Positions 600-39,642 of a DNA stretch of 40,906 nucleotides are shown here, piece by piece; the stretch's first letter is position 1; each line of letters starts with the position of its first letter. The notes under the pieces were generated by a model. The model had not been told where the DNA came from and did no database searches. It was given only the letters and a program-made list of their open reading frames with translations. The stretch lies in IMG/VR virus record IMGVR_UViG_3300005529_000065, positions 1 to 40,906 of that record. One strand, written 5' to 3'. The position numbers were made by a program, and so were the translations under genes. Origin of the DNA: a virus.

Positions 600-670
600 T
601 GGGGATTCGTCTAACGGTAAGACTGCGGCTTCTGGTGCCGCCAATTGAGGTTCGAATCCTTGATCCCCAG
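600..670 (+). tRNA. tRNA-Gln (anticodon CUG)
   Basis: The cloverleaf can be drawn by hand. Acceptor TGGGGAT (600-606) pairs with ATCCCCA (663-669) and the discriminator is G670. The D arm is GTCT/AGAC. The anticodon stem GCGGC/GCCGC closes the loop TTCTGGT with anticodon CTG. The T loop is TTCGAAT. CCA is not encoded. It lies in the 218-bp gap between the 608-aa structural gene and the scaffold gene, inside the late operon. The neighbouring structural genes use CAG heavily, which would fit a role in boosting late translation; that is inference. Confidence 0.95.
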
Positions 671-2291: not shown

Positions 2292-2555
2292 ATGACACAG
2301 CAGATTGTCGGGCGCGTCACCACGCCGACCCTGCAGCGGGTGAATACTGCTGCCACGACGGTGATCCCGTCGGGCGTGCAGTCGGTGAGTATCACGGTGG
2401 TGGCGTCCAGTGGTGGGACGTCTCCGACTGTGCAGGGTTGTCCGCTGCCGGCGAATGTGACCATTTCGTTGAGCGCGAACCCTGAGCAGACTTTGTCTCC
2501 GGTGACTGTGGTGACCGCGACCGGGGATGATGTGATCATCGCGGTGATTCAGTGA
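2292..2555 (+). CDS. small virion-associated protein of unknown function
   Basis: 87 residues, starting at ATG 2292 with GAGGAAGG upstream. Rich in Val and Thr with alternating hydrophobic residues, so probably all-beta. It sits between the capsid and collagen-like genes and overlaps the next start by 4 bases (GTGA). It could be a head decoration or connector component; I recognise no family. Confidence 0.7.
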
Positions 2556-3187
2556 GCATTCAGGCGCAGAAGTACGGCGCCACCGGGGCCACTGGGGCCA
2601 CTGGGGCCACTGGACCAGCGGGCCCTACCGGGGCTACAGGCGCTACCGGAGCCACTGGGGCCACGGGTGCCACGGGTGCCACTGGCACTAACGGTGCGGA
2701 CAACTTGGCGGGCCGGTCCTCAACGATCCCCCGCTACACGTTGGACAACATGCTCACGCCGACGGCGGGCTGCTGCTTCCTGATGGGCGTCACGGCCTCC
2801 GGGTCTTACACGTCTACGGGTGTGACGTTCTGGGCTACGGCCCAGTCGGGAACGATCCGCGTGGGCCTGTTCACGTTGGACGGTAGCGAGAACGGGACGC
2901 TGGTCGCGTCTGGGTCTGCGGCGTCTACGACTGCGGGTTTGAACACGATCAACTGGACTTCGGGCTACGCGGTTACTGGGGGCACCCGGTATGCGGCTGC
3001 GTTCCTGGTCCCGAGTGGCGGTACGCCGCCGACGGTGCTGGGGTTCTTCGAGAACATTGATGACGTGTTCCTGTTGCAGCATCCGTTCCTGTCTGGCTAT
3101 GTGGGTTCGGGTTCTATTTCGACGATTCCGTCGACTTTCACTTACGCGTCGGTGGCTTTCTGGCATCCGATCTGGTTGACGATCTGA
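2552..3187 (+). CDS. collagen-like structural protein 1
   Basis: 211 residues from GTG 2552. Residues about 10-48 are Gly-X-Y triplets, mostly GAT with GPA/GPT variants, that is, a collagen-like triple-helix stalk. A beta-rich C-terminal domain of about 150 residues follows and would be displayed at the tip. Such proteins act as trimeric fibres or capsid decorations in phages of Gram-positive hosts. Together with the Cys-rich gene after it, it forms a cassette that is repeated immediately downstream (3351-4330). Confidence 0.8.
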
Positions 3188-3350: not shown

Positions 3351-4157
3351 GTGGTTCTGAATGCGAATACTGGGTTCGGTCAGACCCCTTATGGTTTCGC
3401 CCCTGGCGGTAAGTCTTCTGGGTCTGGTGGCACGGGGGCTACCGGCCCGACGGGGCCTACTGGTCCCACTGGTGCTACCGGCGCTGCCGGCGCCACAGGC
3501 GCTACGGGTGCTACGGGAGCCACTGGCGCTACTGGCTCTCAGGGTCCTACCGGTCCTACCGGTCCTACCGGCGCCACGGGGGCTACGGGCGCGACCGGGG
3601 CCACCGGCGCGACCGGTCCGGCGGGCGGTTCGTATCCCGTCCCGGGTCGCCTGCGCTCGGCCACATCGATCTGCAACATCGATCCGTGGCAGGCGACGAC
3701 GTTCCAGTCGCTCTCGTCCGGCTTCCTGTTCTTCTACTTCTTCACCGCCCCGGCGTCGATCACGACGACCCAGGTCCGGTACCTGGTCAACGCAGCCGCC
3801 TCCGGTGTGACCGGCAGCAGCATCGGCCTGTACTCGGTGGACTCCTCCGACAACGGGACGCTTCTCACTCAGGCGTCATCGACGACGCTGTTCACCAGCA
3901 CCGGCCCGCAGACCGCCACCTGGGCGGCGTCGCAGTCGCTGACGGCCGGAAACCGCTACGCGGTCGGGTTTCTCCAGGTGTCGAGCAGCACGCCGCAGCT
4001 TCTCGCCAGCGTCGGTGCGCTGTCCGCTCTCACGCTGGAGGAGGCGATCGTCCCGCGCATCGCAGCCTCCAAGTCTTCCCAGACGGTGCAGGGCTCGTTC
4101 ACGGCCGCCTCGCTCAGTGGCGCGTCCAGCTCTGTCATCTACTTCGTAGTCCTGTAA
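3351..4157 (+). CDS. collagen-like structural protein 2
   Basis: 268 residues from GTG 3351. An N-terminal segment of about 30 residues is followed by about 23 Gly-X-Y triplets (GAT, GPT, GAA) at residues 28-95, then a beta-rich domain of about 175 residues. It has the same architecture as the 2552 gene but a longer stalk and a divergent tip. The near-identical GGNGCNACN units make this DNA prone to slippage, so stalk length may vary. Probably a trimeric fibre or head decoration. Confidence 0.8.
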
Positions 4158-12085: not shown

Positions 12086-12328
12086 CTAGCGCTTCCGGGG
12101 TTTCTTGTCCGGGATCTTGATGGGTGTGGCGTGGATGCCGACCGGACCCCGCCGGGCGGGGGTGCCGTGCTTCACGAGGTGGTGCAGGTCGATGGCGTGG
12201 CGGTTGCAGACGACGACGTAGGTTTTGATGCCGTCGGGGTTGATGAGTTCCCAGCGTTCGCCTTCGTCCCCGCAGAGGTTGCATTCTCCCTGCCACAGGC
12301 CGGTGAGTTGGTCTCTTGGGTCAGCCAC
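12086..12328 (-). CDS. small Cys/His protein downstream of integrase
   Basis: 80 residues; GTG start overlaps the integrase stop by 8 bases, so it is co-translated with integrase. ECNLCGDEG then VVVCNRHAIDLHHL gives a Cys-x2-Cys...Cys-x2-His pattern, consistent with a small zinc-binding domain; the C-terminus is basic (PDKKPRKR). It could be a recombination directionality factor or other DNA-binding partner of integrase, but no excisionase signature is seen. Confidence 0.65.
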   Translation of the reverse strand: MADPRDQLTGLWQGECNLCGDEGERWELINPDGIKTYVVVCNRHAIDLHHLVKHGTPARRGPVGIHATPIKIPDKKPRKR

Positions 12329-18237: not shown

Positions 18238-19034
18238 CCCGCGCTTTCCGTAATACCCCGGACGCGGGCGGCGTCATTCCTTGCCCGCTCCGGTGCGTAC
18301 AAGACCTCGGACTGAAAATGCTCCGAGGCCAACTGTCCCTGTGGGTCGCGGCACCGGGCGGCGGGAAGACACTCCTGGCCCTGCAGATAGCCCTCCAGGC
18401 CGGTGTACCGACCCTGTACGTGTCCGCGGACACCGACCGCACGGACCAGTCCGTTCGTGCGGCTTTGGCCCTCGGATGGGACGGAATGGACCCCCACGGG
18501 CAGGAAACCGCACTTTCGTGCATCCCGTTGAACGTCCAGTTCTCCTTCGAGTCGTCCCCCACGGCACACGACATCGCGCAGGAATGCGAGGCGTACGCGT
18601 TGGTGTGGGGCCAGTACCCGGAGCTGATCGTCATCGACACCCTGGCGAAGGTGTGGTCGGAGGGCGATGAGACGGCCCGGAACAAGGACGGGGTGGACAA
18701 GTGCCAGGAGATTGCACGGGAGACCGGTGCGCACGTGATGCTCCTGCATCATGCCCAAAAAGCCTTCGATTCTGGAGACAAACCCATCCCACTGGATGGA
18801 TTGATGTCGGGGGTTTCCAAGACTCCGGAGCAGGTCGTTTCTATGTGGAGAGACGACGAGGACCGGTTGACCCTGGCGGTGATCAAGAACCGATCCGGCA
18901 GGGCTGACCCGACGGCGCAGCGCGTGCGGTCTCATGCGGTGCTGAATTTCGAGCAGATGCGTGTGGAAGAGATACAGGTTCAGACCTTCGATTGGGCTGA
19001 CGACGAGTACCTCAAGGGCGGTGTTTATGAGTAA
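18225..19034 (+). CDS. RepA/RecA-fold ATPase (replicative helicase-like)
   Basis: 269 residues from GTG 18225. Walker A APGGGKT (residues 43-49) is followed by the strand VPTLYVSADT; Walker B is LIVIDTLAKVW (near 130-140) with a downstream HVMLLHH motif. The spacing fits the RecA-fold hexameric ATPase group of plasmid RepA and phage DnaB-like helicases (AAA_25 type). Placed before resolvase-like and primase genes, it is the probable replication motor. The usual DnaB N-terminal domain is missing. Confidence 0.8.
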   Translation: MRTLARAFRNTPDAGGVIPCPLRCVQDLGLKMLRGQLSLWVAAPGGGKTLLALQIALQAGVPTLYVSADTDRTDQSVRAALALGWDGMDPHGQETALSCIPLNVQFSFESSPTAHDIAQECEAYALVWGQYPELIVIDTLAKVWSEGDETARNKDGVDKCQEIARETGAHVMLLHHAQKAFDSGDKPIPLDGLMSGVSKTPEQVVSMWRDDEDRLTLAVIKNRSGRADPTAQRVRSHAVLNFEQMRVEEIQVQTFDWADDEYLKGGVYE

Positions 19035-20346: not shown

Positions 20347-20698
20347 CATTCTAGAAGTGTTGCGCTTTTACGGGGCGGAATTGCCGCACTATATTCGCGG
20401 TAACTGGACTCCGATGAAGTGCTGTTTCCACGACGATTCCGTCGCATCCGCGCAGGTCAGGGCCGATGAGGGCGGGAAGTTCAACTGTTTCGTGTGCGGC
20501 ATTTCCGGCGACGGACTGGACATCATAATGGACCGCGAGGGAGTCGGATTTGCTGTCGCACGTTCTCTCGCAGAAGAACGTCACGGAACAATTCGTGGCG
20601 GAATGCGAGACGAGAATAGAGGCCGCCGGTCCCTATTTGATGGGTCGGGGAATCACGAAACAAATGGCAACAGCGGGGCGTCTCGGGGTCTCTTCTGA
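20306..20698 (+). CDS. primase zinc-finger (CHC2) ORF
   Basis: 130 residues from GTG 20306. KCCFHDD and FNCFVCGISGDGLDIIM give Cys39-x2-His42 ... Cys61-x2-Cys64, the CHC2 zinc finger of DnaG primases. The next residues, VARSLAEER, still look primase-like. The last about 35 residues (from HGTIRGG) do not, and here another frame carries the catalytic part (20550-21182). Either two polypeptides cooperate or a +1 shift joins them. Confidence 0.75.
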   Translation: MRKGVRGQATEKPDILEVLRFYGAELPHYIRGNWTPMKCCFHDDSVASAQVRADEGGKFNCFVCGISGDGLDIIMDREGVGFAVARSLAEERHGTIRGGMRDENRGRRSLFDGSGNHETNGNSGASRGLF

Positions 20699-25444: not shown

Positions 25445-25488
25445 AGAACCCCCGCACTCAGGCTCACGGGCCCGGGTACGGGGGTTCT
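25445..25488. terminator. bidirectional terminator between converging operons
   Basis: AGAACCCCCG (25445-25454) and CGGGGGTTCT (25479-25488) form a perfect 10-bp stem between the rightward early operon and the leftward small-gene cluster. Confidence 0.75.
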
Positions 25489-25501: not shown

Positions 25502-25690
25502 TTAAGACCACTTCACGGTCTTGTTGTAGCCGTCACGGACGCGGACCGCGCGCTTAGCCGCGCCCATCGAAACCTCAAGCCGCGCCCGGAACAGGGCCGA
25601 CTGCAGGTCCACCCCATCCGCGTCGAAGCAGCGGACCCAGCGCGTACCGTCATCCGACCGTACGTCCACAGTGTAGTCAGCGCAGTACAT
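25502..25690 (-). CDS. small protein of 62 aa, last gene of leftward cluster
   Basis: ATG at 25690 is preceded by GGAGGGGAAC. The product starts MYCADYTVDVRSDDG and contains SALFRARLEVSMGAAKRAVRV, a strand-strand-helix pattern. Its ribosome-binding site overlaps the 3' strand of stem II of a hammerhead-like RNA (25699-25754), so access to it may depend on ribozyme folding or cleavage. Function unknown. Confidence 0.7.
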   Translation of the reverse strand: MYCADYTVDVRSDDGTRWVRCFDADGVDLQSALFRARLEVSMGAAKRAVRVRDGYNKTVKWS

Positions 25691-25698
25691 GTTCCCCT

Positions 25699-25754
25699 CC
25701 GGCTCATCAGGCCCGGGCTGAGTCCCGGACGACCCCATCACGGGGTTTCGCCAA
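25699..25754 (-). ncRNA. hammerhead ribozyme candidate HHR-2 (type II)
   Basis: Leftward strand, 5' to 3': stem II strand TTGGC (25754-25750); GAAA (25749-25746); stem III A+CCCC / GGGG+T (25746-25742 with 25736-25732) closed by loop GTGAT; cleavage-site C25731; stem I GTCCGGG / CCCGGGC (25730-25724 with 25717-25711, one T-G pair) closed by ACTCAG; CTGATGA (25710-25704); stem II return GCCGG (25703-25699; three Watson-Crick and two G-T pairs). All invariant core bases are present. It starts at the first base after the upstream gene's stop and ends in the downstream ribosome-binding site. Confidence 0.88.
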
Positions 25755-26015
25755 TCAACGCGCTGCAGGCTGCAGGAAACCCGCGCCGTGATTCCGGCCA
25801 CCACACTCACAATCACACGACGGCCCGACCGCCCCAGTGCACTTCGAACTGCACTTCGTCTCAGACACACGACCCTGCACCGCCGACATACGCATACGCG
25901 CCGCGCCACACGAGCAGTACTGGTTCTTCGGGTTGTTGTTCTCGCCCGGCTCCAAGTCCAGCGCGAACGGGTGACCGTTCCTGCACTTACCAACCCAGCG
26001 GGTCAAGGTGACCAT
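25755..26015 (-). CDS. Cys-rich small protein conserved in actinophages
   Basis: 86 residues from ATG 26015, with TGAGGGGG upstream. VGKCRNGHPFALDLEPG, QYCSCGAARM, VSETKCSSKCTGAVGPSCD and CECGGRNHG give nine Cys in pairs, a probable multi-zinc fold. The KC..KCTGA.GPSCDC.CGG.NHG block is one I have seen repeatedly in actinobacteriophage early regions; function is unknown. A hammerhead-like RNA (26042-26096) and a copy of the dispersed element lie in its leader. Confidence 0.75.
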   Translation of the reverse strand: MVTLTRWVGKCRNGHPFALDLEPGENNNPKNQYCSCGAARMRMSAVQGRVSETKCSSKCTGAVGPSCDCECGGRNHGAGFLQPAAR

Positions 26016-26041
26016 CGTGAACCCCCTCAGGACTTGGCTTG

Positions 26042-26096
26042 GACTCATCAGACCAACGAGAGCCACTCGTTGATGACGCCTCAACGGCGTTTCGCC
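26042..26096 (-). ncRNA. hammerhead ribozyme candidate HHR-1 (type II)
   Basis: Leftward strand, 5' to 3': stem II strand GGC (26096-26094); GAAA (26093-26090); stem III A+CGCC / GGCG+T (26090-26086 with 26080-26076), loop GTTGA; cleavage-site C26075; stem I ATCAACGAG / CTCGTTGGT (26074-26066 with 26060-26052, 9 bp with one T-G), loop TGGCT; CTGATGA (26051-26045); stem II return GTC (26044-26042). Stem II is short (3 bp with one G-T). The core is complete. It sits between a TTGACAG element and the 86-aa gene's ribosome-binding site. Confidence 0.85.
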
Positions 26097-26108
26097 ACAC
26101 GGTTTGGC

Positions 26109-26122
26109 GCTGTCAACTAACC
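26109..26122 (-). promoter_or_regulatory. dispersed element, copy 11 (GGTTAGTTGACAGC)
   Basis: Leftward copy 12 bases upstream of HHR-1. Confidence 0.6.
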
Positions 26123-26138
26123 GCCCAACCCCAACCCC

Positions 26139-26231
26139 TCACCACGGCAACACCCGACCACCAGGTGTCCGAGTGTTCACCGGCTCAACCGGCCGACGAA
26201 CCGGCCTACGCGTGATCTGAACCCGCTTCAC
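26139..26231 (-). CDS. possible 30-aa basic peptide
   Basis: GTG at 26231 overlaps the preceding stop by 4 bases (GTGA). The product KRVQITRRPVRRPVEPV... is basic and Pro-rich, ending GGRVLPW. The coupling favours a real gene; size and lack of known relatives make it uncertain. Confidence 0.4.
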   Translation of the reverse strand: MKRVQITRRPVRRPVEPVNTRTPGGRVLPW

Positions 26232-26380
26232 CGCGCCACCCCCATCTCCCGGTAGAGCTGGGCCACCAGATAGGCCGCGTGCTCCTGCACGTCCGAACGA
26301 ACCTCGTCCCGGCCCACCCCGTACTCGCCCATCCACGCCTCAGCGTCGACATCGACGGTGAAACTGATCCTGACCTTCAT
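26228..26380 (-). CDS. small protein of 50 aa
   Basis: ATG at 26380 follows GGAGGGAGGCGTC, a strong site. Product MKVRISFTVDVDAEAWMGEYG then EVRSDVQEHAAYLVAQLYRE: a beta strand followed by an amphipathic helix, compatible with a ribbon-helix-helix DNA-binding fold, though that is not certain. Its leader has plain hairpins but no hammerhead core. Confidence 0.65.
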   Translation of the reverse strand: MKVRISFTVDVDAEAWMGEYGVGRDEVRSDVQEHAAYLVAQLYREMGVAR

Positions 26381-26465
26381 GACGCCTCCCTCCACTCTCA
26401 ACCCACACGGCGTGTGGACCCAGAGCAGAGGACGGGCCTTTCGGCCCGCCCCGGCTGCACAACGA

Positions 26466-26588
26466 CTACTCGTCAGCGGAAAACACGCCCTGCGGGCACC
26501 GACACATCTCGTGATCCGCATGCGCGCATTCACCACACAACACACACACGTACAGGCTCATGCACGACCCATAGTGCTCAGCGTCCAT
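26466..26588 (-). CDS. small Cys/His protein of 40 aa, first gene of leftward cluster
   Basis: ATG at 26588 with GGGAGGG upstream. MDAEHYGSCMSLYVCVLCGE and CAHADHEMCRC give a zinc-finger-like Cys/His set in 40 residues. The ribosome-binding site lies in stem-loop II, and the first base of the ATG in stem III, of the hammerhead-like RNA HHR-3. This is the clearest sign that translation of this gene is tied to ribozyme structure. Function unknown. Confidence 0.7.
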   Translation of the reverse strand: MDAEHYGSCMSLYVCVLCGECAHADHEMCRCPQGVFSADE

Positions 26589-26640
26589 GGTTTCGCCCTC
26601 CCATTGGGCTCATCAGTCCGCGCGGGATACGCGGAGACCA
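26588..26640 (-). ncRNA. hammerhead ribozyme candidate HHR-3 (type III)
   Basis: Leftward strand, 5' to 3': stem III strand TGGT (26640-26637); cleavage-site C26636; stem I TCCGCG / CGCGGA (26635-26630 with 26622-26617), loop TATCCCG; CTGATGA (26616-26610); stem II GCCC / GGGC (26609-26606 with 26598-26595), loop AATGGGA; GAAA (26594-26591); stem III return A+CCA (26591-26588, 4 bp). Loop I (TCCC) and loop II (GGGA) are complementary, as in loop-loop contacts of fast natural hammerheads. The GGGA also belongs to the ribosome-binding site, and base 26588 is the A of the start codon. Confidence 0.9.
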
Positions 26641-26805
26641 AACCTCGGGCCAACACATCGCGTCAGGGGAACCCGGTCTCATCGCGCGCACGCGCCCGGT
26701 GCCTGCACGCGAGAAGCCCTCGCGGCATTAGAGTGGCCAAGCCACCCGTGACGCCTCCCGGCGATGAACCAACAGTGCCACCACCAGCGAGCACTGTCAA
26801 CCAAC
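26589..26805 (-). other. leader of the leftward cluster, no further gene supported
   Basis: Beyond HHR-3 this 217-bp stretch holds a leftward TTGACAG element (26791-26804) and GC-rich short hairpins (GCGAG/CTCGC and GTGGC/GCCAC on the leftward strand). A leftward GGGAGGCGTCACG near 26755 resembles the ribosome-binding site and start of the 50-aa gene but with ACG instead of ATG, perhaps a decayed gene. Confidence 0.4.
26791..26804 (-). promoter_or_regulatory. dispersed element, copy 12 (TTGGTTGACAGTGC)
   Basis: Leftward copy at the head of the leftward cluster, probably near its promoter. Confidence 0.6.
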
Positions 26806-27188
26806 TCAACCAAGGTCACCACACCAAACCGGCCAGCCACAACACAACCCTCAACCATTGCTTGAGGGTTTTAGTTCATGCGTGAACCATTCGCTTGCAT
26901 CAGCAAGCATTAGCTAGCAGCTGGCATACCAATACCATCAATCACACACACCACATCAACATGATGCCATCGCACAATGGCAACCAACTCACACATTGGT
27001 TTGTGCGCATTCGTGCACGTCACAAGCATGATCATCGCAACGTCTCGCGCGCCGGAAGTTTGACCCGGTATTGCTAAATTCGCGCGCACGGATCTTTATT
27101 ACTGTTGTCTCACAAATCTTGGGAAGTATTCCGGTTTCGGGCGCTGTGGGGATGTCCCCAGTGGGTCTCCGGAGTGCTCCCCCTAGTG
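26806..27188. other. intergenic block rich in inverted repeats (possible replication origin)
   Basis: No supported gene in 383 bp; base composition is visibly richer in A and T than the rest. It contains AACCCTCAA/TTGAGGGTT (26846-26870), GCTTGC-ATCA-GCAAGC (26893-26908), TGCCAT/ATGGCA (26965-26982) and repeats of the type AACCATT(C)GCTTG near 26853 and 26885. It lies between the leftward and rightward transcription units. Origin or divergent promoter region is inferred; no DnaA-box array is clear. Confidence 0.4.
26846..26870. terminator. hairpin AACCCTCAA/TTGAGGGTT
   Basis: Nine-bp stem with 7-nt loop, followed by TTTAG on the rightward strand; could end a transcript or serve as an origin element. 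Confidence 0.45.
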
Positions 27189-27202
27189 GTACAGTCAACT
27201 AT
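27189..27202 (-). promoter_or_regulatory. dispersed element, copy 13 (ATAGTTGACTGTAC)
   Basis: Leftward orientation although the nearest gene downstream (27228) is rightward; the only copy that points against its adjacent gene. ACTGT replaces ACAGT. Confidence 0.5.
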
Positions 27203-27227
27203 CTTCTCTGGAGTGGGGTGGGTCGTT

Positions 27228-27413
27228 GTGGGTACTTGGGATTATGGGTGGGGTTCTGGGTCGGGTCCGGGTGTGTGGGGTGTGTTGTTGGTGGTGGTTG
27301 TTTTTTGTGTGGTGCGGGTTGGGGTGGAGGAGTTGGTGGGTTGGGTTCGTCGGCGGGTGGCTCGGAGGCGGGCGTTGGTTGCGGCTCGGCGTAATCGGCG
27401 TGGGTGGTTGTGA
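27228..27413 (+). CDS. small single-pass membrane protein
   Basis: 61 residues from GTG 27228, with GGAG about 14 bases upstream (a nearer site is lacking). GTWDYGWGSGSGPG is followed by a membrane helix (VWGVLLVVVVFCVVRVGV) and a basic tail (RRRVARRRALVAARRNRRGW): N-out/C-in topology expected. Isolated between the repeat-rich block and the tandem terminators. A role in superinfection exclusion is possible but unproven. Confidence 0.6.
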   Translation: MGTWDYGWGSGSGPGVWGVLLVVVVFCVVRVGVEELVGWVRRRVARRRALVAARRNRRGWL

Positions 27414-27516
27414 TGGTTAGGTGGAGGTTAGCTTCGCAGGTCAATCCGGGACTGGATTGCTGTTGCAGTACAGTGAGGGGCACACACAGTGCCCTTGTAG
27501 ATACTCCGTATCTAGT

Positions 27517-27644
27517 GGGCCCCATCTAAGGGGCCCCATCTTCTTGGTGTTGAATGTGTTCCGGCCTGGAGGCCGGTTGGTTCGTATTCAACTACCGTAG
27601 GCTTGTTTCTAGCACCACCCTTGAGGGGTGGTGCTTTTGTTTTT
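27517..27644 (+). terminator. tandem terminators upstream of late operon
   Basis: Three perfect stems: GGGCCCC/GGGGCCC (27517-27536), CCGGCC/GGCCGG (27561-27576), and AGCACCACCC/GGGTGGTGCT (27611-27635) followed by TTTTGTTTTT, a classical rho-independent terminator. They insulate the late operon from upstream transcription. The rest of 27414-27722 shows no gene. Confidence 0.85.
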
Positions 27645-27692
27645 AAGTCTTATACGCGCGTGCGCGCGTAACGTCCGTGTTGTCCTGTACGA

Positions 27693-27706
27693 TTAGTTGA
27701 CAGTGC
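27693..27706 (+). promoter_or_regulatory. dispersed element, copy 14 (TTAGTTGACAGTGC)
   Basis: 16 bases before the first late gene (27723), directly after TACGAT, which may be a -10 hexamer. It is the only copy serving the long late operon before the capsid gene. Confidence 0.6.
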
Positions 27707-27722
27707 CGTAGGCAGGTGGAGC

Positions 27723-27905
27723 ATGTCCCGTTGGGATTGCCGTGGGTGCGGTGGACCGCTGGTGACGGCGGAGAACGGGACGGGCATGTACTGCCCGGAC
27801 TTGACGTGTCCGACGGGGAACCGTCAGGCCCGCAGGTTGGCTCGGGCTGGTCGGTGGGCGGACGAGAGGGTTGACCCGGATGAGTGGTTCTACGGCGACG
27901 ACTGA
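27723..27905 (+). CDS. small zinc-ribbon protein, first late gene
   Basis: 60 residues from ATG 27723, with CAGGTGGAG upstream. WDCRGCGGPL then MYCPDLTCPTG is a two-knuckle zinc ribbon; the C-terminus is acidic (DPDEWFYGDD). The following gene also has Cys pairs. Role unknown; late regulator or packaging accessory possible. Confidence 0.65.
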   Translation: MSRWDCRGCGGPLVTAENGTGMYCPDLTCPTGNRQARRLARAGRWADERVDPDEWFYGDD

Positions 27906-29030: not shown

Positions 29031-29054
29031 TTAGACAGAAGGGCGGTGGTCCCC

Positions 29055-30968: not shown

Positions 30969-31374
30969 GGTCGGCTGCAAGGCTCATGTTGTTCGGGACA
31001 TGAAGTGCGACCCCTGCCGACGGTGGGCTCTCCGCCTCCGTGAACCGTGGCGCATGCCGTGGTCCTCGTTCCTCACACACTGCGGTGTGTCTCTGAACCG
31101 CAGGTTCTGGCTGTGGGTCGAGGAAGACGGCGACTGCTGGGTTTGGACGGGCGATGTCACTGCCGGTGGCTACGGTACTTGGGATCATGACGTGGTACAT
31201 CGTGTTGCGTACCGCGAGATGGTGGCCGAGATTCCGGCGGGCTACGAGGTGGACCACCTCTGCCGCAACACACGCTGCGTCAAGCCGGATCACCTGGAGG
31301 CGGTTCCTCCGCGGGTGAACAAGAACCGGATCGTGAATAAGGGTCGCCCGAAGGGGGTGCGCAGTGGCAACTAG
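30952..31374 (+). CDS. HNH homing endonuclease 3, between terminase and portal
   Basis: 140 residues from ATG 30952, with GGAGAAAG upstream. N-terminal Cys pairs (VGCKAHVVRDMKCDPC), then GDCWVWTGDVTAGGYG and VDHLCRNTRCVKPDHLEAV, the HNH core. It overlaps terminase by 17 bases and portal by 11. Its core matches the proteins at 19027 and 23837. HNH proteins next to terminase can assist cos cleavage, but similarity to the two others favours a homing element. Confidence 0.87.
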   Translation: MAVRSRVGCKAHVVRDMKCDPCRRWALRLREPWRMPWSSFLTHCGVSLNRRFWLWVEEDGDCWVWTGDVTAGGYGTWDHDVVHRVAYREMVAEIPAGYEVDHLCRNTRCVKPDHLEAVPPRVNKNRIVNKGRPKGVRSGN

Positions 31375-33861: not shown

Positions 33862-36800
33862 GTGACGTACCCCGGCACCCCTAACCCTGCTGCGGTTACG
33901 TTCGGCGACACCCTGTCCGGGAATCCCCAGCTCGTGAACGACCCGTCTCTGGCGTACCCGACTGCGATGGCTGGTCTGTCGGCTGACCAGCAGGTTCAGG
34001 TGACGAACGCTGGTGCGGGCAACTCCATCAAGGACTACCTGACTGCCCTGCCGGCCGCGGAGCAGCCGAAGGCGTGGGCCGCCCTGAACGGGCAGCAGCA
34101 GCAGTTGGCGTTGGCTTCCGGGTACCAGACCGGTTTGGCGCAGGCGCAACAGTCGCGGGTGACGGCCCCGGAGAACCAGGGCGGCAAGTCTTGGCTGTCC
34201 CGCATCGGCGGGGACGTTCTGGGCGCGGTGAAGACGGGCGTCACGGACACCGTGGACAGCGTGTGGAATGCCGGGGCCAAGGTCCTGTCCATGGCCGGTA
34301 TCCCGTTGAAGTACGTGCAGCGGGCCGCCAACACGGGAATCCTGGACATTACGGACCTGGCCGAGGGTAACCCGATTTCGATCGGGCGGGCCTGGGCTCA
34401 GGCCGGTTCGGCGCCGATGACGCAGGACTCGTACAACGACCTGGTGAAGCAGTTCGGCCAGCCGATGATGGACTTGGTGAGGTCTGCCCAGAAGGGCGAC
34501 GATCCGGAGGCGCTGGCGGGGCAACTGCTGGCGAAGGCCAAGGCTGACCCGGCGAATGCCGCGATGTACAACCAGCAGATTGCGGCGATCCAGAATGCGC
34601 AGAACTCCCCGGAGTTCAAGCAGGCCTTGATTGCGGCGAACAACCACCTGATCTCCCCTGGGCGCATTGTCACCTCCTGGGCCGCTAACGCCCTGTCGAC
34701 GGTGACCGGCGGGAACGTGGACCTGTACCAGCACAAGGTGCTGTACGGGCTGCTGTCCGGGCCCGTGGACGCGATGTTCGACTTCCAGGCCGACCCGTTG
34801 ATGCTCGCGGGGAAGCTGCACGAGGAGGCCGCAGTCATGCGGCGCGGCATCCAGATCGCCGAGAACTACGCAGGCGAAGACTTGGCCAAGGTCGGCGGGG
34901 CTCTCGCCGAGGGCGCCGGGGAGGCCGCCGCTGGGGCCGAGGCGGGCGCTGAAGCTGGCGGTGTTGGCGGTTCCCTGGCGGGCCCGGAGGGTACCGCTGT
35001 CGGTGGCCTCGTGGGTGGTGTTGCTGGTGCCGCGGGCGGGATTCTGTCGACGATTCTGCAGTGGGCCAACAAGGGCGGCTCGCAGCGCCTCGCGCACGTG
35101 ATCGCTCAGCACGCCGCTGGCGGGGACGGTTTCCAGCCGATCGCCGACGCTGCCGCGTTCCAGAACCGGCTGCGCCAGGTGTTTTCCGTTCCGTCCGTGC
35201 AGCGGTACTTCGACGGCATGGGCGCGCGGGTTCAGACGGTCATGTCCGGCACGGCGGAGGGCGCTACCGAGGCTGACCGGGACGCGGCTGCTGCGGCGAT
35301 GAAGTCGATGCGCCGTGACTACCCGCGCTTCGCCCCGGTGCTGGACTCCCTCGTGGAGGCCGGTGTCACCGACGCCCACAAGGCGGAGAACTTCTTCAAC
35401 AACTACAAGGGCTTCCAGCTTTTGACGCAGGGCGTGCCCGCGTCGCGGGTGCCGTTGATGGCTGCCCGCACCCAGTTGGGCGAGAACATCAAGAAGTTCA
35501 TCAGCCCTGGTGCGGTGTTCGACTTCCTGGAGAACGGCCACAAGCTGACCCAGGACGACATGAACGACATCAAGACGCACATCGCTGGGCTGACTCAGGA
35601 GGTTTCTCCGGAGTCGCGCGCTGCGGCGCTGGGCGGCCAGAACCTGGCTGAGGGTACGACTGCGGCGCAGGCGAACCTGCATGTGGCGAACCTGTTGTCG
35701 CAGGCCCAGTTCGACACGTGGCGTGGCAAGACGGCCACGATCATGCGCCGTATCGGGTCGAAGATCCCCACCTTCGGTGAGGGCAACGTCCTGTACCACG
35801 ACGGCCTGGACGCCGAGGGCAAGCCGGTGTCGGAGCCGACGCAGGAGTTCACCCGGTTCGTGAAGATGTTCGCGCCGTCGTTCTACGCGGACCAGGTCGG
35901 GCAGGCGTACGCGGCTGCGGACTTGGCGGGGCGGAAGAACATTGCGGCGTCGATGCTGCACATGATGGGCGACTCTGCGGGTATCACGAAGACTGCGGCT
36001 GGCCGCGACTCGTGGGCCCGCGTGATCGGTGCCCTGAATGAGGATGGCCAGGCGAAGTACACGCTGACGGACCTGGGGCAGATGCCTGATGGCCGGAACG
36101 TGGTGGCGGACCCGGGCAAGGCCCGGCCGTACACGGTGATGCCCAGCATCAAGGAGTTCTACGCCCAGTCGGCTAAGCATGGTGTGCTGGCGCACACGGT
36201 GGGTTGGACGAACAAGGATGTTGTTGACAGTCTTGTTGACAAGATCTGGCGTCCGTTCGTTCTGATCCGCCCGGCATTCATCATCCGGTCGAACATCGAA
36301 GAGGCGCTGAACCACATTCTGCGCAACGGTCCGGGTGACAAGTTCATGTCTATGATCCGCCGGTCGGCGGGTAACGAGCTTGCCCGGCAGCAGAAGGAGA
36401 AGCTGGGGATCGACGCGGCGAAGGCAAACCAGGCTTTGTCGGAGCACATTGCCGCGGTGAAGTCCGTGTACGGCGACGACGCGACGGTTGAGAAGCTGCG
36501 CGCCGCGACCACGGGCGACACGCAGGACATGCGTACGGTGGCGGACAAGTGGGCCAGCCTGAAGGCGAATGCCCAGGAGGCGACGAACGCGTTCGAGCAG
36601 CACCCCGGCGTGTTGGACCCGGACCACTCCAGGTTCACGAAGCTTGCGCTGATGCCGATCACGCAGTCGTCGCGGGCGTTCACTGCCGCGCTGCGGAAGG
36701 TGCCGGTCGACGCGCAGTTCTTCGGCCGGGGCTTCAAGTCTTCTGGGGCTGAGATCCGTGACGCCATTGAGGCGCACGGCACCCAGATGCAGCAGTTGCA

Positions 36801-39642
36801 GGCGAACCTTGAGGACGCCCGGACGAACCTGTCGCGGGCTACTGCCGCGTTCGAGCAGAAGTACGGGAAGCCCCTGGCTGAGGTTCAGGCCCGCGCGGCC
36901 GACCAGTCCCTGACCCCGGCGGATCGTCGGGTGGCTGAACGGCAACTGAAGGCGCACAACGACAACGTGTCGAAGTTGCGTGACGGTGTCACTCAGGCGC
37001 AGATGGCGTTGGACGCGCACGGGGATCTGCCGGCGGTTGCGCGGTCTGCCCGGGACAACATGGTCGCGGGGTGGGTGGATCGCCGTGAGGCGGCGTTCTT
37101 CCACTTCATGGGCCGCATGTCTTTGAAGGTTATTCAGGACATGAACCCGAAGGACGTTGAGCGTCTGTGGGAGTGGGCTCAGCACCCTGAGGGCCAACGC
37201 ATCATGGGCCACGCCTTGAATGAGGCGGCGGACCGGTCTATGCGGAACGCGACTCCGGACATTCAGCCGGGGAAGCGGGCGCAGAAGGTCCGGGTGAAAC
37301 TGGACACGTTCGGCACGAAGTCGGCCGCTGGCGATGAGGGCGCGAAGGCTTGGTCCTGGGCGCTTGAGGACCAGTCCAGCAACCCGTTGCTGCAACCGGC
37401 GATGCTGCACGCGGATGACACGCAGGCCGCGGAGAAGGCTGTCCTGGCTGCGATCAAGGCGCATCCGGAGTGGAAGAAGACGATGACCCTGTTCGCGGGG
37501 AAGTCGGATGAGACTGTGGCGCAGCAGGCCGTGAAGGAAGTTCAGGCTCACCTGTCGTTCGGGAACACGGCGGAGGGTCCGGGCCAGTTGAACCGGGACC
37601 TGTTCGCCCGGATGATCAAGGAGGACCCGGAGACGGGTATCCGCACCCTGAACCCCGAGGCGTGGACCCCGGAGCGTTTGCAGGAGATCCCCGGGAAGTT
37701 CCGGCCGGAGCAGGTGTTCGCACCGGATTCGCATCTGGTGGAGGACAACTCGAAGGACGGCTTCTACACGCGGCTGGTGCAGGACGGCTTCTCCCGGATG
37801 GGGAAGTGGATCTCATTCCTGGGCCGCAGCGACCAGGCCGTGTCGGAGTACCTGAACGCCCGCAAGGTGCTGCAGCCGTGGGAGGAGATGTACGCCAACC
37901 ACCTGGCCCACGTCGGGCTGGAGGAAGGCGTCGAGCCGACCGCCGAGGAGATGGCGAAGGCCCAGGCGATTGCCAAGGACCAGGCCATCAAGAACGCGTC
38001 CAGCCAAGCGCTGGCCCGCACTCTGCGGTTCGTCGACCACCCCGGTGTGCGTTCCCAGGCCGCTGTCCTGATGCGGAACATGGCGCCGTTCTGGCGCGCC
38101 GAGCAGGGTTTCCTTGAGCGGTGGGGGCAGACGTTCCGGTACGCCCCGTCCGCGTTGGGAAAGCTTGAGGAGACTGCGCATTTCCTGCAGACGACTCCGT
38201 ACCTGCACAAGGACGCCAACGGGAACACGTACATGTCGTTGCCGTTCACGCGGCAGATGACCAGGTTCGTGGACGACATCGGCCACGCGACCGGGCTGCC
38301 GCTTCAGTATCTGCCGATCCCGAACACGATCAGCGGGAACATCCTGCGGTCATCGCCCGGGTTCAACGTGGACTTCCTGAAGCACCCGATCAACGGCCCG
38401 ATCGTGACGCTGCCGCTGCAGACGTGGCAGATGTTCACGCACGGTTCGACCCCGGATCTTCTGTTGAAGACCCTGGGTGGGGATCAGGCGACGACGCAGG
38501 CCGGCCAGGGTTTCGAGGGTGCGTTCTTGAACTCGCTGCCGTCGGCTATCCGGCCGCTGATGCAGTTGGCGTTCAACCAGGATCAGTACCGTGAGACTGC
38601 GACGATGCAGGCCATCGCGACGATCCAGAGCAACCCGGAGCTGGCGTTGCCGACGGATGCCACGTCGGCGCAGAAGCAGGCGTGGCTGAACCGGGTCAAC
38701 GCTGCTGCGCTCGGGATGGCGTTGACTGAGGCGTTGTTCCGTCCGTTCGACCCGATGCCCATCACCAATGAGGCTCCTATTCCGGCGGCGGACCCGGCTG
38801 CTCAGGCGGCTGGCCTGTTGAACGTGAAGCAGGAGTTCAACCAGATGGTGAAGGACTCCGGTGGGGATTACATCCAGGCGTACAACTACTGGGTGGCTGC
38901 CCACCCGGATGAGATCCCGTTCTTGACGGGACAGTCGGAGTCGTCTGGTGGGCCTTCGATTCCGGACACACAGCAGGCGTTCGACTGGATGCAGAACAAC
39001 CAGCAGTTGATCAAGGATTACCCGCTGGCTGCCACCTACCTGATTCCGCAGCCGGGATCTAGCGGTGACACGTTCTCGTTCGCGCCGTTCCAGATGGCCC
39101 AGCAGTTGGGTCTGGTGAAGAACCTGTCGGCGCGGGACTACCTGTCGAAGGTTCAGGAGAAGTCGAACATCAACACGTACTACCAGATGAAGGATCAGGA
39201 GGCCCAGGAGATCGGGGACCTGTCCCCGTATTCGGCGGCTGCCGCGCAGATCCGGGCCAAGTGGAACGCGAAGATCCAGCCCTGGTTGGCCCTGAACCCG
39301 GATGTGGCTACGTACGTGAACGACTCCAGCAACCGTGCCGACACCCGGAACCAGACGGTGGTTCAGATGGTGCAGATGTTGGACGCGCATCCGGAGCTGT
39401 TGAACACGCAGGCCGGGAAGGTCATGAACGGTTTCGTTGGTTTGTTTGTGCAGTACCAGTCGAACATGGCGGGGATCATGGCCCACGGGATGGCGAAGAC
39501 CACCCAGCAGAAGGCTCTGACGAACCAGTTCGACCAGGAGGCGCAGCAGATTGCGAACGGTTCGCCGACTGGGCAAATGCTTTACAACTCGCTGTTCCGT
39601 GACATGGAGCAGACCGACATCGCGGCGGTTGGGGGTATCTGA
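33862..39642 (+). CDS. giant structural protein, probable internal/ejection protein
   Basis: 1926 residues from GTG 33862, with GGAGGACC upstream. Mostly alpha-helical and Ala/Gln-rich. Features: a glycine-zipper segment near residues 350-395 (AGGVGGSLAGPEG; GGLVGGVAGAAGGIL); a RPAFIIRSNIEEALN block near 810; coiled coil near 975-1065 (MQQLQANLEDARTNLSRATA). No lysozyme motif is clear. It lies between portal and scaffold, not after tail genes, so tape measure is unlikely; transport into the cell with the DNA, as for large podovirus internal proteins, is the best guess. Its TGA overlaps the next ATG. Confidence 0.75.
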   Translation: MTYPGTPNPAAVTFGDTLSGNPQLVNDPSLAYPTAMAGLSADQQVQVTNAGAGNSIKDYLTALPAAEQPKAWAALNGQQQQLALASGYQTGLAQAQQSRVTAPENQGGKSWLSRIGGDVLGAVKTGVTDTVDSVWNAGAKVLSMAGIPLKYVQRAANTGILDITDLAEGNPISIGRAWAQAGSAPMTQDSYNDLVKQFGQPMMDLVRSAQKGDDPEALAGQLLAKAKADPANAAMYNQQIAAIQNAQNSPEFKQALIAANNHLISPGRIVTSWAANALSTVTGGNVDLYQHKVLYGLLSGPVDAMFDFQADPLMLAGKLHEEAAVMRRGIQIAENYAGEDLAKVGGALAEGAGEAAAGAEAGAEAGGVGGSLAGPEGTAVGGLVGGVAGAAGGILSTILQWANKGGSQRLAHVIAQHAAGGDGFQPIADAAAFQNRLRQVFSVPSVQRYFDGMGARVQTVMSGTAEGATEADRDAAAAAMKSMRRDYPRFAPVLDSLVEAGVTDAHKAENFFNNYKGFQLLTQGVPASRVPLMAARTQLGENIKKFISPGAVFDFLENGHKLTQDDMNDIKTHIAGLTQEVSPESRAAALGGQNLAEGTTAAQANLHVANLLSQAQFDTWRGKTATIMRRIGSKIPTFGEGNVLYHDGLDAEGKPVSEPTQEFTRFVKMFAPSFYADQVGQAYAAADLAGRKNIAASMLHMMGDSAGITKTAAGRDSWARVIGALNEDGQAKYTLTDLGQMPDGRNVVADPGKARPYTVMPSIKEFYAQSAKHGVLAHTVGWTNKDVVDSLVDKIWRPFVLIRPAFIIRSNIEEALNHILRNGPGDKFMSMIRRSAGNELARQQKEKLGIDAAKANQALSEHIAAVKSVYGDDATVEKLRAATTGDTQDMRTVADKWASLKANAQEATNAFEQHPGVLDPDHSRFTKLALMPITQSSRAFTAALRKVPVDAQFFGRGFKSSGAEIRDAIEAHGTQMQQLQANLEDARTNLSRATAAFEQKYGKPLAEVQARAADQSLTPADRRVAERQLKAHNDNVSKLRDGVTQAQMALDAHGDLPAVARSARDNMVAGWVDRREAAFFHFMGRMSLKVIQDMNPKDVERLWEWAQHPEGQRIMGHALNEAADRSMRNATPDIQPGKRAQKVRVKLDTFGTKSAAGDEGAKAWSWALEDQSSNPLLQPAMLHADDTQAAEKAVLAAIKAHPEWKKTMTLFAGKSDETVAQQAVKEVQAHLSFGNTAEGPGQLNRDLFARMIKEDPETGIRTLNPEAWTPERLQEIPGKFRPEQVFAPDSHLVEDNSKDGFYTRLVQDGFSRMGKWISFLGRSDQAVSEYLNARKVLQPWEEMYANHLAHVGLEEGVEPTAEEMAKAQAIAKDQAIKNASSQALARTLRFVDHPGVRSQAAVLMRNMAPFWRAEQGFLERWGQTFRYAPSALGKLEETAHFLQTTPYLHKDANGNTYMSLPFTRQMTRFVDDIGHATGLPLQYLPIPNTISGNILRSSPGFNVDFLKHPINGPIVTLPLQTWQMFTHGSTPDLLLKTLGGDQATTQAGQGFEGAFLNSLPSAIRPLMQLAFNQDQYRETATMQAIATIQSNPELALPTDATSAQKQAWLNRVNAAALGMALTEALFRPFDPMPITNEAPIPAADPAAQAAGLLNVKQEFNQMVKDSGGDYIQAYNYWVAAHPDEIPFLTGQSESSGGPSIPDTQQAFDWMQNNQQLIKDYPLAATYLIPQPGSSGDTFSFAPFQMAQQLGLVKNLSARDYLSKVQEKSNINTYYQMKDQEAQEIGDLSPYSAAAAQIRAKWNAKIQPWLALNPDVATYVNDSSNRADTRNQTVVQMVQMLDAHPELLNTQAGKVMNGFVGLFVQYQSNMAGIMAHGMAKTTQQKALTNQFDQEAQQIANGSPTGQMLYNSLFRDMEQTDIAAVGGI

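What the first reader, a model, noticed from the sequence alone, without database searches (positions are those of the whole stretch)
25502..26805. A leftward operon of tiny genes controlled by serial hammerhead ribozymes: possible new regulatory system
Three hammerhead cores occur within about 950 bases and, as far as I could read, nowhere else in the genome. All are on the same strand, each directly upstream of a small open frame. Two overlap translation signals. Hammerheads in phages are known individually; three in series as intercistronic leaders of one operon is, to my knowledge, not a described arrangement. Possible roles: mRNA processing into monocistronic units, ribosome-site gating, or timing of early or lysogenic expression of small Cys-rich proteins.
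Basis: partly seen in the sequence, partly recalled or inferred. Interest (0 to 1): 0.97.

Follow-up and report, generated by a model that had tools for sequence, protein, structure and literature searches.

The report
Phage operon cut by three hammerheads
A phage of actinobacteria carries three self-cutting RNAs ahead of and between its small genes; comparison with more than 100 similar phage arrays suggests that such series follow a fixed order and cut one long message into short messages that each end in a hairpin.

Summary
In detail: three consensus hammerhead ribozymes (HHRs) lie on the minus strand, one type III followed by two type II; none appear elsewhere in the window and none in 60 shuffled windows. 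The claim that serial HHRs are undescribed is wrong. Perreault et al. 2011 reported clustered phage HHRs, including a triple array that cuts in vitro and in E. coli. The window is a new member of that known kind.

New here are two rules from 117 non-redundant phage arrays. (1) Order: in 27 of 31 mixed arrays containing type III, type III is 5'-most (11.9 expected, P = 8e-9); type III precedes type II in 31 of 31 pairs. (2) Types I and II start within a few nt of the upstream stop codon, so their own stems form the 3' end of the upstream mRNA. Type III cannot do this: at operon heads it has no gene to serve, and between genes it usually carries an extra hairpin abutting it (71 groups, P = 8e-8 against heads).

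Best explanation: co-transcriptional cutting into short mRNAs with hairpin 3' ends. Ribosome-site gating is possible for two of the three but atypical of the class. Cleavage in this phage is untested.

The parts
26585..26643 (-). HHR1, hammerhead type III; predicted cut after 26636 (GUC^UCC); contains SD and ATG of ORF1; loop I UCCC can pair with loop II GGGA
   Evidence: Rfam RF00008 35.1 bits E 2.5e-5; independent scan
26466..26588 (-). ORF1, 40 aa, Cys/His-rich
   Evidence: only a weak homologue in a Gordonia phage, E 0.5
26431..26450 (-). GAAA-tetraloop hairpin between ORF1 and ORF2 (no ribozyme in this gap)
   Evidence: read from sequence
26228..26380 (-). ORF2, 50 aa, small actinophage protein family (phrog_2869)
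26139..26231 (-). ORF3, 30 aa, GTG start overlapping the ORF2 stop; uncertain
   Evidence: read from sequence; not called
26032..26097 (-). HHR2, hammerhead type II; predicted cut after 26075; loop I UGGCU / tail AGCCA pseudoknot option
   Evidence: Rfam RF02276 34.7 bits E 8.8e-5
25755..26015 (-). ORF4, 86 aa, Cys-rich (phrog_6842)
25694..25753 (-). HHR3, hammerhead type II; predicted cut after 25731; abuts the ORF4 stop; stem II overlaps the ORF5 SD
   Evidence: Rfam RF02276 34.2 bits E 1.2e-4
25502..25690 (-). ORF5, 62 aa, no homologue found
25445..25488 (-). Terminator-like hairpin (AGAACCCCC/GGGGGTTCT), T/G-rich tail
   Evidence: read from sequence; overlapping hits
26641..27879 (.). About 1.2 kb without predicted genes between HHR1 and the divergent rightward genes leading to terminase; expected promoter region
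   Evidence: no sigma-70 consensus promoter found

Best explanation
The three hammerheads punctuate a leftward transcript. HHR1 (type III) removes the 5' leader at the head of the operon. HHR2 and HHR3 (type II) cut between genes. The products would be three units: ORF1-3 (26635-26075, 561 nt), ORF4 (26074-25731, 344 nt) and ORF5 (25730 to the terminator near 25445, about 290 nt). Because of their topology the type II cuts leave a stem-loop on both new ends: stem III with a 2',3'-cyclic phosphate closes the upstream mRNA, and stem I with a 5'-OH opens the downstream one. Across phages the common denominator is a defined hairpin 3' end for each upstream mRNA without stopping RNA polymerase, which would let neighbouring small genes have separate mRNA lifetimes and translation. 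Shown (computed): ribozyme presence and consensus structure, gene positions, the order rule, the hairpin rule. Inferred: cleavage in this phage, RNA stabilisation, independent expression.
For: Rfam and independent detection with full consensus cores. Neighbouring HHRs within 2 kb in phage loci share a strand in 257 of 259 cases. They fill intercistronic gaps: stop codon to ribozyme median 1 nt (type I) and 3.5 nt (type II), ribozyme to next start about 25 nt, few inside genes. Type III is 5'-most in 27/31 mixed arrays against 11.9 expected, P 8e-9; 20/24 at the level of unrelated groups, P 1.6e-6; robust to scanner and gap choice. In those arrays the first type III follows an opposite-strand gene or a stop a median 781 nt away, whereas later HHRs follow a same-strand stop at a median of 1 nt in 53/53. 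Intercistronic type III carry an extra hairpin whose 3' end abuts the ribozyme at 0-1 nt (81/98), mean z -2.74 over 71 groups against -0.99 at heads, P 8e-8; 59% against 19% of HHR-free gaps have z below -2, P 4e-22. The four exceptions to the order rule (L264, L499, L642, L662) have such a hairpin. A comparable triple phage array cuts in vitro and in E. coli (Perreault 2011).
Against: No RNA data exist for this phage. In a 106-nt context the minimum-energy fold of HHR1 is not the hammerhead (-36.4 against -30.4 kcal/mol with the hammerhead enforced), so HHR1 may misfold or be conditional. HHR3 has only a 3-bp candidate tertiary contact. The terminase relative L809 has a similarly placed leftward operon of small genes with hairpin-like sequences after several stops but no hammerhead, so cutting is not essential to the layout. 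HHR2 starts 42 nt after the ORF3 stop, not directly on it. Hammerhead cutting leaves a 5'-OH, which for Bacillus glmS leads to decay by RNase J (own knowledge), so downstream mRNA could be destabilised. No promoter was identified.
Confidence: 0.62

Rival explanations
1. Ribosome-site gating: the folded ribozyme hides the SD of ORF1 (loop II/stem II paired with loop I) and of ORF5 (stem II), and cutting or unfolding exposes it, so the ribozymes act as translational switches.
For: HHR1 contains the SD and ATG of ORF1, and HHR3 stem II overlaps the ORF5 SD (sequence).
Against: HHR2 leaves its SD free. In comparable loci only 31/440 starts lie within 10 nt of the ribozyme. After type III cutting, stems I and II stay on the downstream RNA, so cutting alone would not free the ORF1 SD.
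Confidence: 0.13
2. Circular mRNAs: the two ends of a unit between type II ribozymes rejoin through stem II and are ligated.
For: Type II topology permits it; neighbouring type II ribozymes in arrays cross-pair in stem II better than chance (2.86 against 1.77 bp).
Against: The reverse cross-pairing, which would not make a circle, is equally high (2.83), so similarity of neighbours explains it. Perreault et al. looked for circular or spliced products and found none.
Confidence: 0.06
3. Cassette recombination: similar ribozymes flanking single genes are homology tracts by which phages exchange small genes; cutting is secondary.
For: Neighbouring ribozymes in arrays are alike (type I open stem cross-pairing 3.55 against 0.98 bp); genes in arrays are mostly non-conserved; the L809 relative lacks the ribozymes.
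Against: Intact catalytic cores, the order rule and the type-specific hairpin are not expected from homology tracts. The two type II ribozymes of the window differ in all stems.
Confidence: 0.1
4. Relics or chance matches without function.
For: All three are below Rfam cut-offs; no activity data; absent from the relative L809.
Against: None in 60 shuffled windows; full consensus cores; ordered placement against genes.
Confidence: 0.07

Closest known systems
Clustered hammerhead ribozymes of prophages (Perreault et al. 2011, PMC3088659, Figure 3; triple array around ardA in Agrobacterium tumefaciens)
   Same: Several HHRs on one transcript flanking single small phage genes; the same proposed role (processing of long phage transcripts).
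   Different: Different genes and host group; here a phage contig of an actinobacterial type with order III-II-II. In the passages read the paper gives no order rule, stop-codon abutment or extra hairpin with type III.
Rfam RF02276 Hammerhead_II and RF00008 Hammerhead_3
   Same: Core and topology match full length.
   Different: All three score below the gathering cut-offs (34.7 and 34.2 against 37; 35.1 against 48.5).
HHphage of haloviruses HF1/HF2
   Same: Ribozyme just upstream of a phage start codon (13 nt).
   Different: Single ribozyme before a helicase gene; not a series.
glmS ribozyme
   Same: Self-cleaving leader of a bacterial mRNA.
   Different: Different fold, metabolite-activated and single; destabilises its mRNA (own knowledge).

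Membership tests
Hammerhead ribozyme (types III and II) | Invariant core C3-A9, G12-A14, A15.1-U16.1, H17 with three helices | tested here: met
Hammerhead ribozyme (types III and II) | Rfam gathering score | tested here: not met
   below cut-off although full length with E below 2e-4; the cut-off is a curation threshold, not a biochemical criterion, and misses other arrays too
Hammerhead ribozyme (types III and II) | Loop I contact with loop II or the stem II tail | tested here: inconclusive
   Read from sequence: HHR1 UCCC/GGGA 4 bp, HHR2 UGGCU/AGCCA 5 bp, HHR3 only 3 bp
Hammerhead ribozyme (types III and II) | Self-cleavage | not testable with these tools
   needs in vitro transcription
Clustered phage hammerheads (Perreault 2011) | Two or more HHRs close together in a phage or prophage | tested here: met
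   three within 950 b; phage genes
Clustered phage hammerheads (Perreault 2011) | HHRs flank single genes or short gene blocks | tested here: met
Clustered phage hammerheads (Perreault 2011) | Transcript cut at all sites | not testable with these tools
   shown for other arrays
Order and hairpin rule proposed here | Type III 5'-most, without an adjacent upstream gene | tested here: met
   HHR1 is first; about 1.2 kb without predicted genes upstream
Order and hairpin rule proposed here | Intercistronic HHR starts within a few nt of the upstream stop codon | tested here: inconclusive
   HHR3 0 nt; HHR2 42 nt after the ORF3 stop

The most novel reading that the evidence does not exclude
Hammerhead arrays of phages form a directional mRNA punctuation system. 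Type III marks the operon head; types I and II (or type III with an added hairpin) sit on stop codons and give genes their own hairpin 3' end while RNA polymerase reads on, acting as processing signals in place of terminators. The window's III-II-II array is an instance, elaborated by placing two ribosome-binding sites in or against the ribozyme.
Probability: 0.45. Interest if true: 0.82.

Novelty: new member of a known kind. Interest (0 to 1): 0.6.

Why it matters
The biological role of hammerheads in phages has stayed open since 2011. The order and hairpin rules, computed here from many unrelated phage contigs, turn that open question into a sharp prediction: the ribozymes make short mRNAs with hairpin ends, and the permutation used depends on whether a gene needing a 3' end lies upstream. 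The window gives one compact operon (three ribozymes, five small ORFs, one terminator-like hairpin) in which this can be tested.

Tried and rejected
Relatives of ORF4 in viral contigs: none. Hammerheads near homologues of ORF2 and ORF4 in six named actinophages: none, so the genes are not tied to HHRs. Circle-specific pairing: neighbour complementarity is high in both directions, so not specific. Sigma-70 promoters upstream of head type III: no excess in mean score over shuffles (7.66 against 7.60), although 14% against 4% score at least 10/12; left open. Bacterial genomes: the one scan gave no mixed array containing type III. The idea that every downstream product needs a 5' hairpin was rejected because type I leaves none (5'-leader z -0.38). 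Folding-energy z-scores of the three window ribozymes are unremarkable; the evidence for them is sequence consensus. Literature searches found no report of the order or hairpin rule; only open-access papers are held, so this is not proof of novelty.

Full report
What was checked. The window is a 40,906-base IMG/VR virus record. Its genes mark it as a tailed phage with an integrase: large terminase at 29046, portal at 31364, major head protein at 1289, integrase at 12321 (minus), DnaB-like helicase at 18318 and primase at 20550. Its terminase is closest among named phages to Streptomyces phages, at about 42%, and other genes match mycobacteriophages and Arthrobacter phages, so an actinobacterial host is likely. 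Rfam with default cut-offs sees no ribozyme. With E-value reporting it gives one type III and two type II hammerheads on the minus strand, full length and in series. A scanner written here, requiring the full core and three helices in any permutation, finds exactly the same three and none in 60 dinucleotide-based random windows.

Anatomy. Reading leftward there is about 1.2 kb without predicted genes, then HHR1 (type III, cut after 26636), ORF1 (40 aa), a GAAA-loop hairpin, ORF2 (50 aa), ORF3 (30 aa, uncertain), HHR2 (type II, cut after 26075), ORF4 (86 aa), HHR3 (type II, cut after 25731), ORF5 (62 aa) and a terminator-like hairpin at 25488-25445. A simple gene caller trained on the window itself places ORFs 1, 2, 4 and 5 exactly there. 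ORF2 and ORF4 have homologues in other actinophages, ORF1 only a weak one, ORF5 none. In HHR1 the SD of ORF1 lies in loop II/stem II, in the strand that can pair with loop I, and the ATG lies in stem III. In HHR3 the ORF4 stop codon TGA abuts stem II and the ORF5 SD overlaps it. HHR2 has the usual type II pseudoknot option (UGGCU/AGCCA) and a free SD.

The novelty claim. Perreault et al. 2011 state that multiple hammerheads lie close together flanking individual genes or short blocks in prophages, propose processing of long transcripts, and show that a triple array from Agrobacterium cuts in vitro and in E. coli. A 2017 review repeats that different HHRs lie close together and flank ORFs for small, non-conserved proteins. 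The arrangement is therefore known.

What the comparison adds. The scanner gives 2 hits in 1.76 Mb of shuffled sequence against 670 in 5.2 Mb of real loci, and neighbouring HHRs within 2 kb share a strand in 257 of 259 cases. Rfam at its own cut-offs confirms all ten ribozymes of L070 and the three type II of L507, though it misses those of L670, L468, L281, L178, L490 and L217. After removing near-duplicates there are 117 arrays of 2-10 ribozymes.

Order rule. The idea that type III comes first arose from the first loci and was then tested on later scans. Array clusters first seen in the discovery scans: 6/6. Second set: 13/15, P 6.5e-5. Third set: 8/10, P 0.005. Overall 27/31 against 11.9 expected, P 8e-9; type III before II in 31 pairs and after in 0; before I in 33 and after in 6; no order between I and II. 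With one array per unrelated group: 20/24, P 1.6e-6. The result holds for strict and relaxed scanners and gap limits of 0.8-4 kb, although at 4 kb with the relaxed scanner four II-before-III pairs appear. The window (III-II-II) obeys the rule and was not part of the test.

Gene context. Ribozymes sit in the gaps between genes: stop codon to ribozyme median 1 nt for type I, 3.5 nt for type II, 35 nt for type III; ribozyme to next start about 25 nt. In mixed arrays with type III first, that element follows an opposite-strand gene (6/20) or a stop a median 781 nt away; the later ribozymes follow a same-strand stop at a median of 1 nt in 53/53. Among single ribozymes, type III is at operon heads in 54/122 against 22/129 for types I and II, P 2.7e-6.

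Hairpin rule. Type I cleavage leaves stems II and III, and type II cleavage leaves stem III, on the end of the upstream mRNA. Type III leaves only a bare strand. If the point is a hairpin 3' end, intercistronic type III should bring its own hairpin. It does: stop-to-ribozyme segments fold at -14.4 against -7.0 kcal/mol when shuffled. The hairpin ends 0-1 nt from the ribozyme in 81 of 98. Over 71 unrelated groups mean z is -2.74, against -0.99 for 62 groups at operon heads, P 8.5e-8. Ordinary HHR-free gaps in the same contigs do not match this (z -0.67 against -2.71, P 4e-22). The four arrays that break the order rule all have the hairpin before their internal type III (L499, L264, L642 and L662). 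Downstream products show no such universal feature, since type I leaves an unstructured leader. This points to 3' ends of upstream genes as the selected property.

Interpretation and limits. I favour co-transcriptional cutting into short mRNAs with hairpin ends, with a type III element trimming the leader at the head. The structural statements are computed. Cleavage and RNA stability in this phage are inferred. In longer context HHR1 has a competing fold that is 6 kcal/mol better than the enforced hammerhead, so its activity is the least certain. A terminase relative (L809, 63%) has a divergent leftward operon of small genes in the same place, with hairpin-like sequences after several stop codons but no hammerhead. 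That fits the view that the hairpin is the constant and the cut an addition, and it shows the ribozymes are not conserved within this lineage.

Noticed in passing
L670:477-4847 (coordinates on the reverse complement of the locus): Ten hammerheads in series (III then nine II), one after almost every small gene, ending at an integrase gene and followed by an 833-aa gene that reads like a T7-type RNA polymerase (recognised by eye, not searched).
   Followed up: partly
L070:3925-6747 (minus): Ten type II hammerheads, mostly one per small gene; all ten pass the Rfam cut-off.
   Followed up: yes
Rfam RF00008 and RF02276; window, L670, L468, L281, L178, L490, L217: Rfam gathering cut-offs miss many phage hammerheads: those of the window and of these loci are not reported by default.
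   Followed up: partly
26636-26681 (minus): GAGACC upstream of HHR1 can pair with GGUCUC spanning its cleavage site, a possible inactive alternative fold.
   Followed up: partly
L809:252-1410 (minus): Terminase relative with a leftward operon of small genes and hairpin-like sequences after several stops but no ribozyme; TTAGTTGA-like motifs recur in its gaps and in the window (26120-26113).
   Followed up: partly
33862-39642 (+): 1926-aa ORF with no PHROGs match.
   Followed up: no
2552-3187 and 3351-4157 (+): Two ORFs with collagen-like Gly-Ala-Thr repeats.
   Followed up: no
600-670 (+): tRNA gene among structural genes (Rfam 51.4 bits).
   Followed up: no
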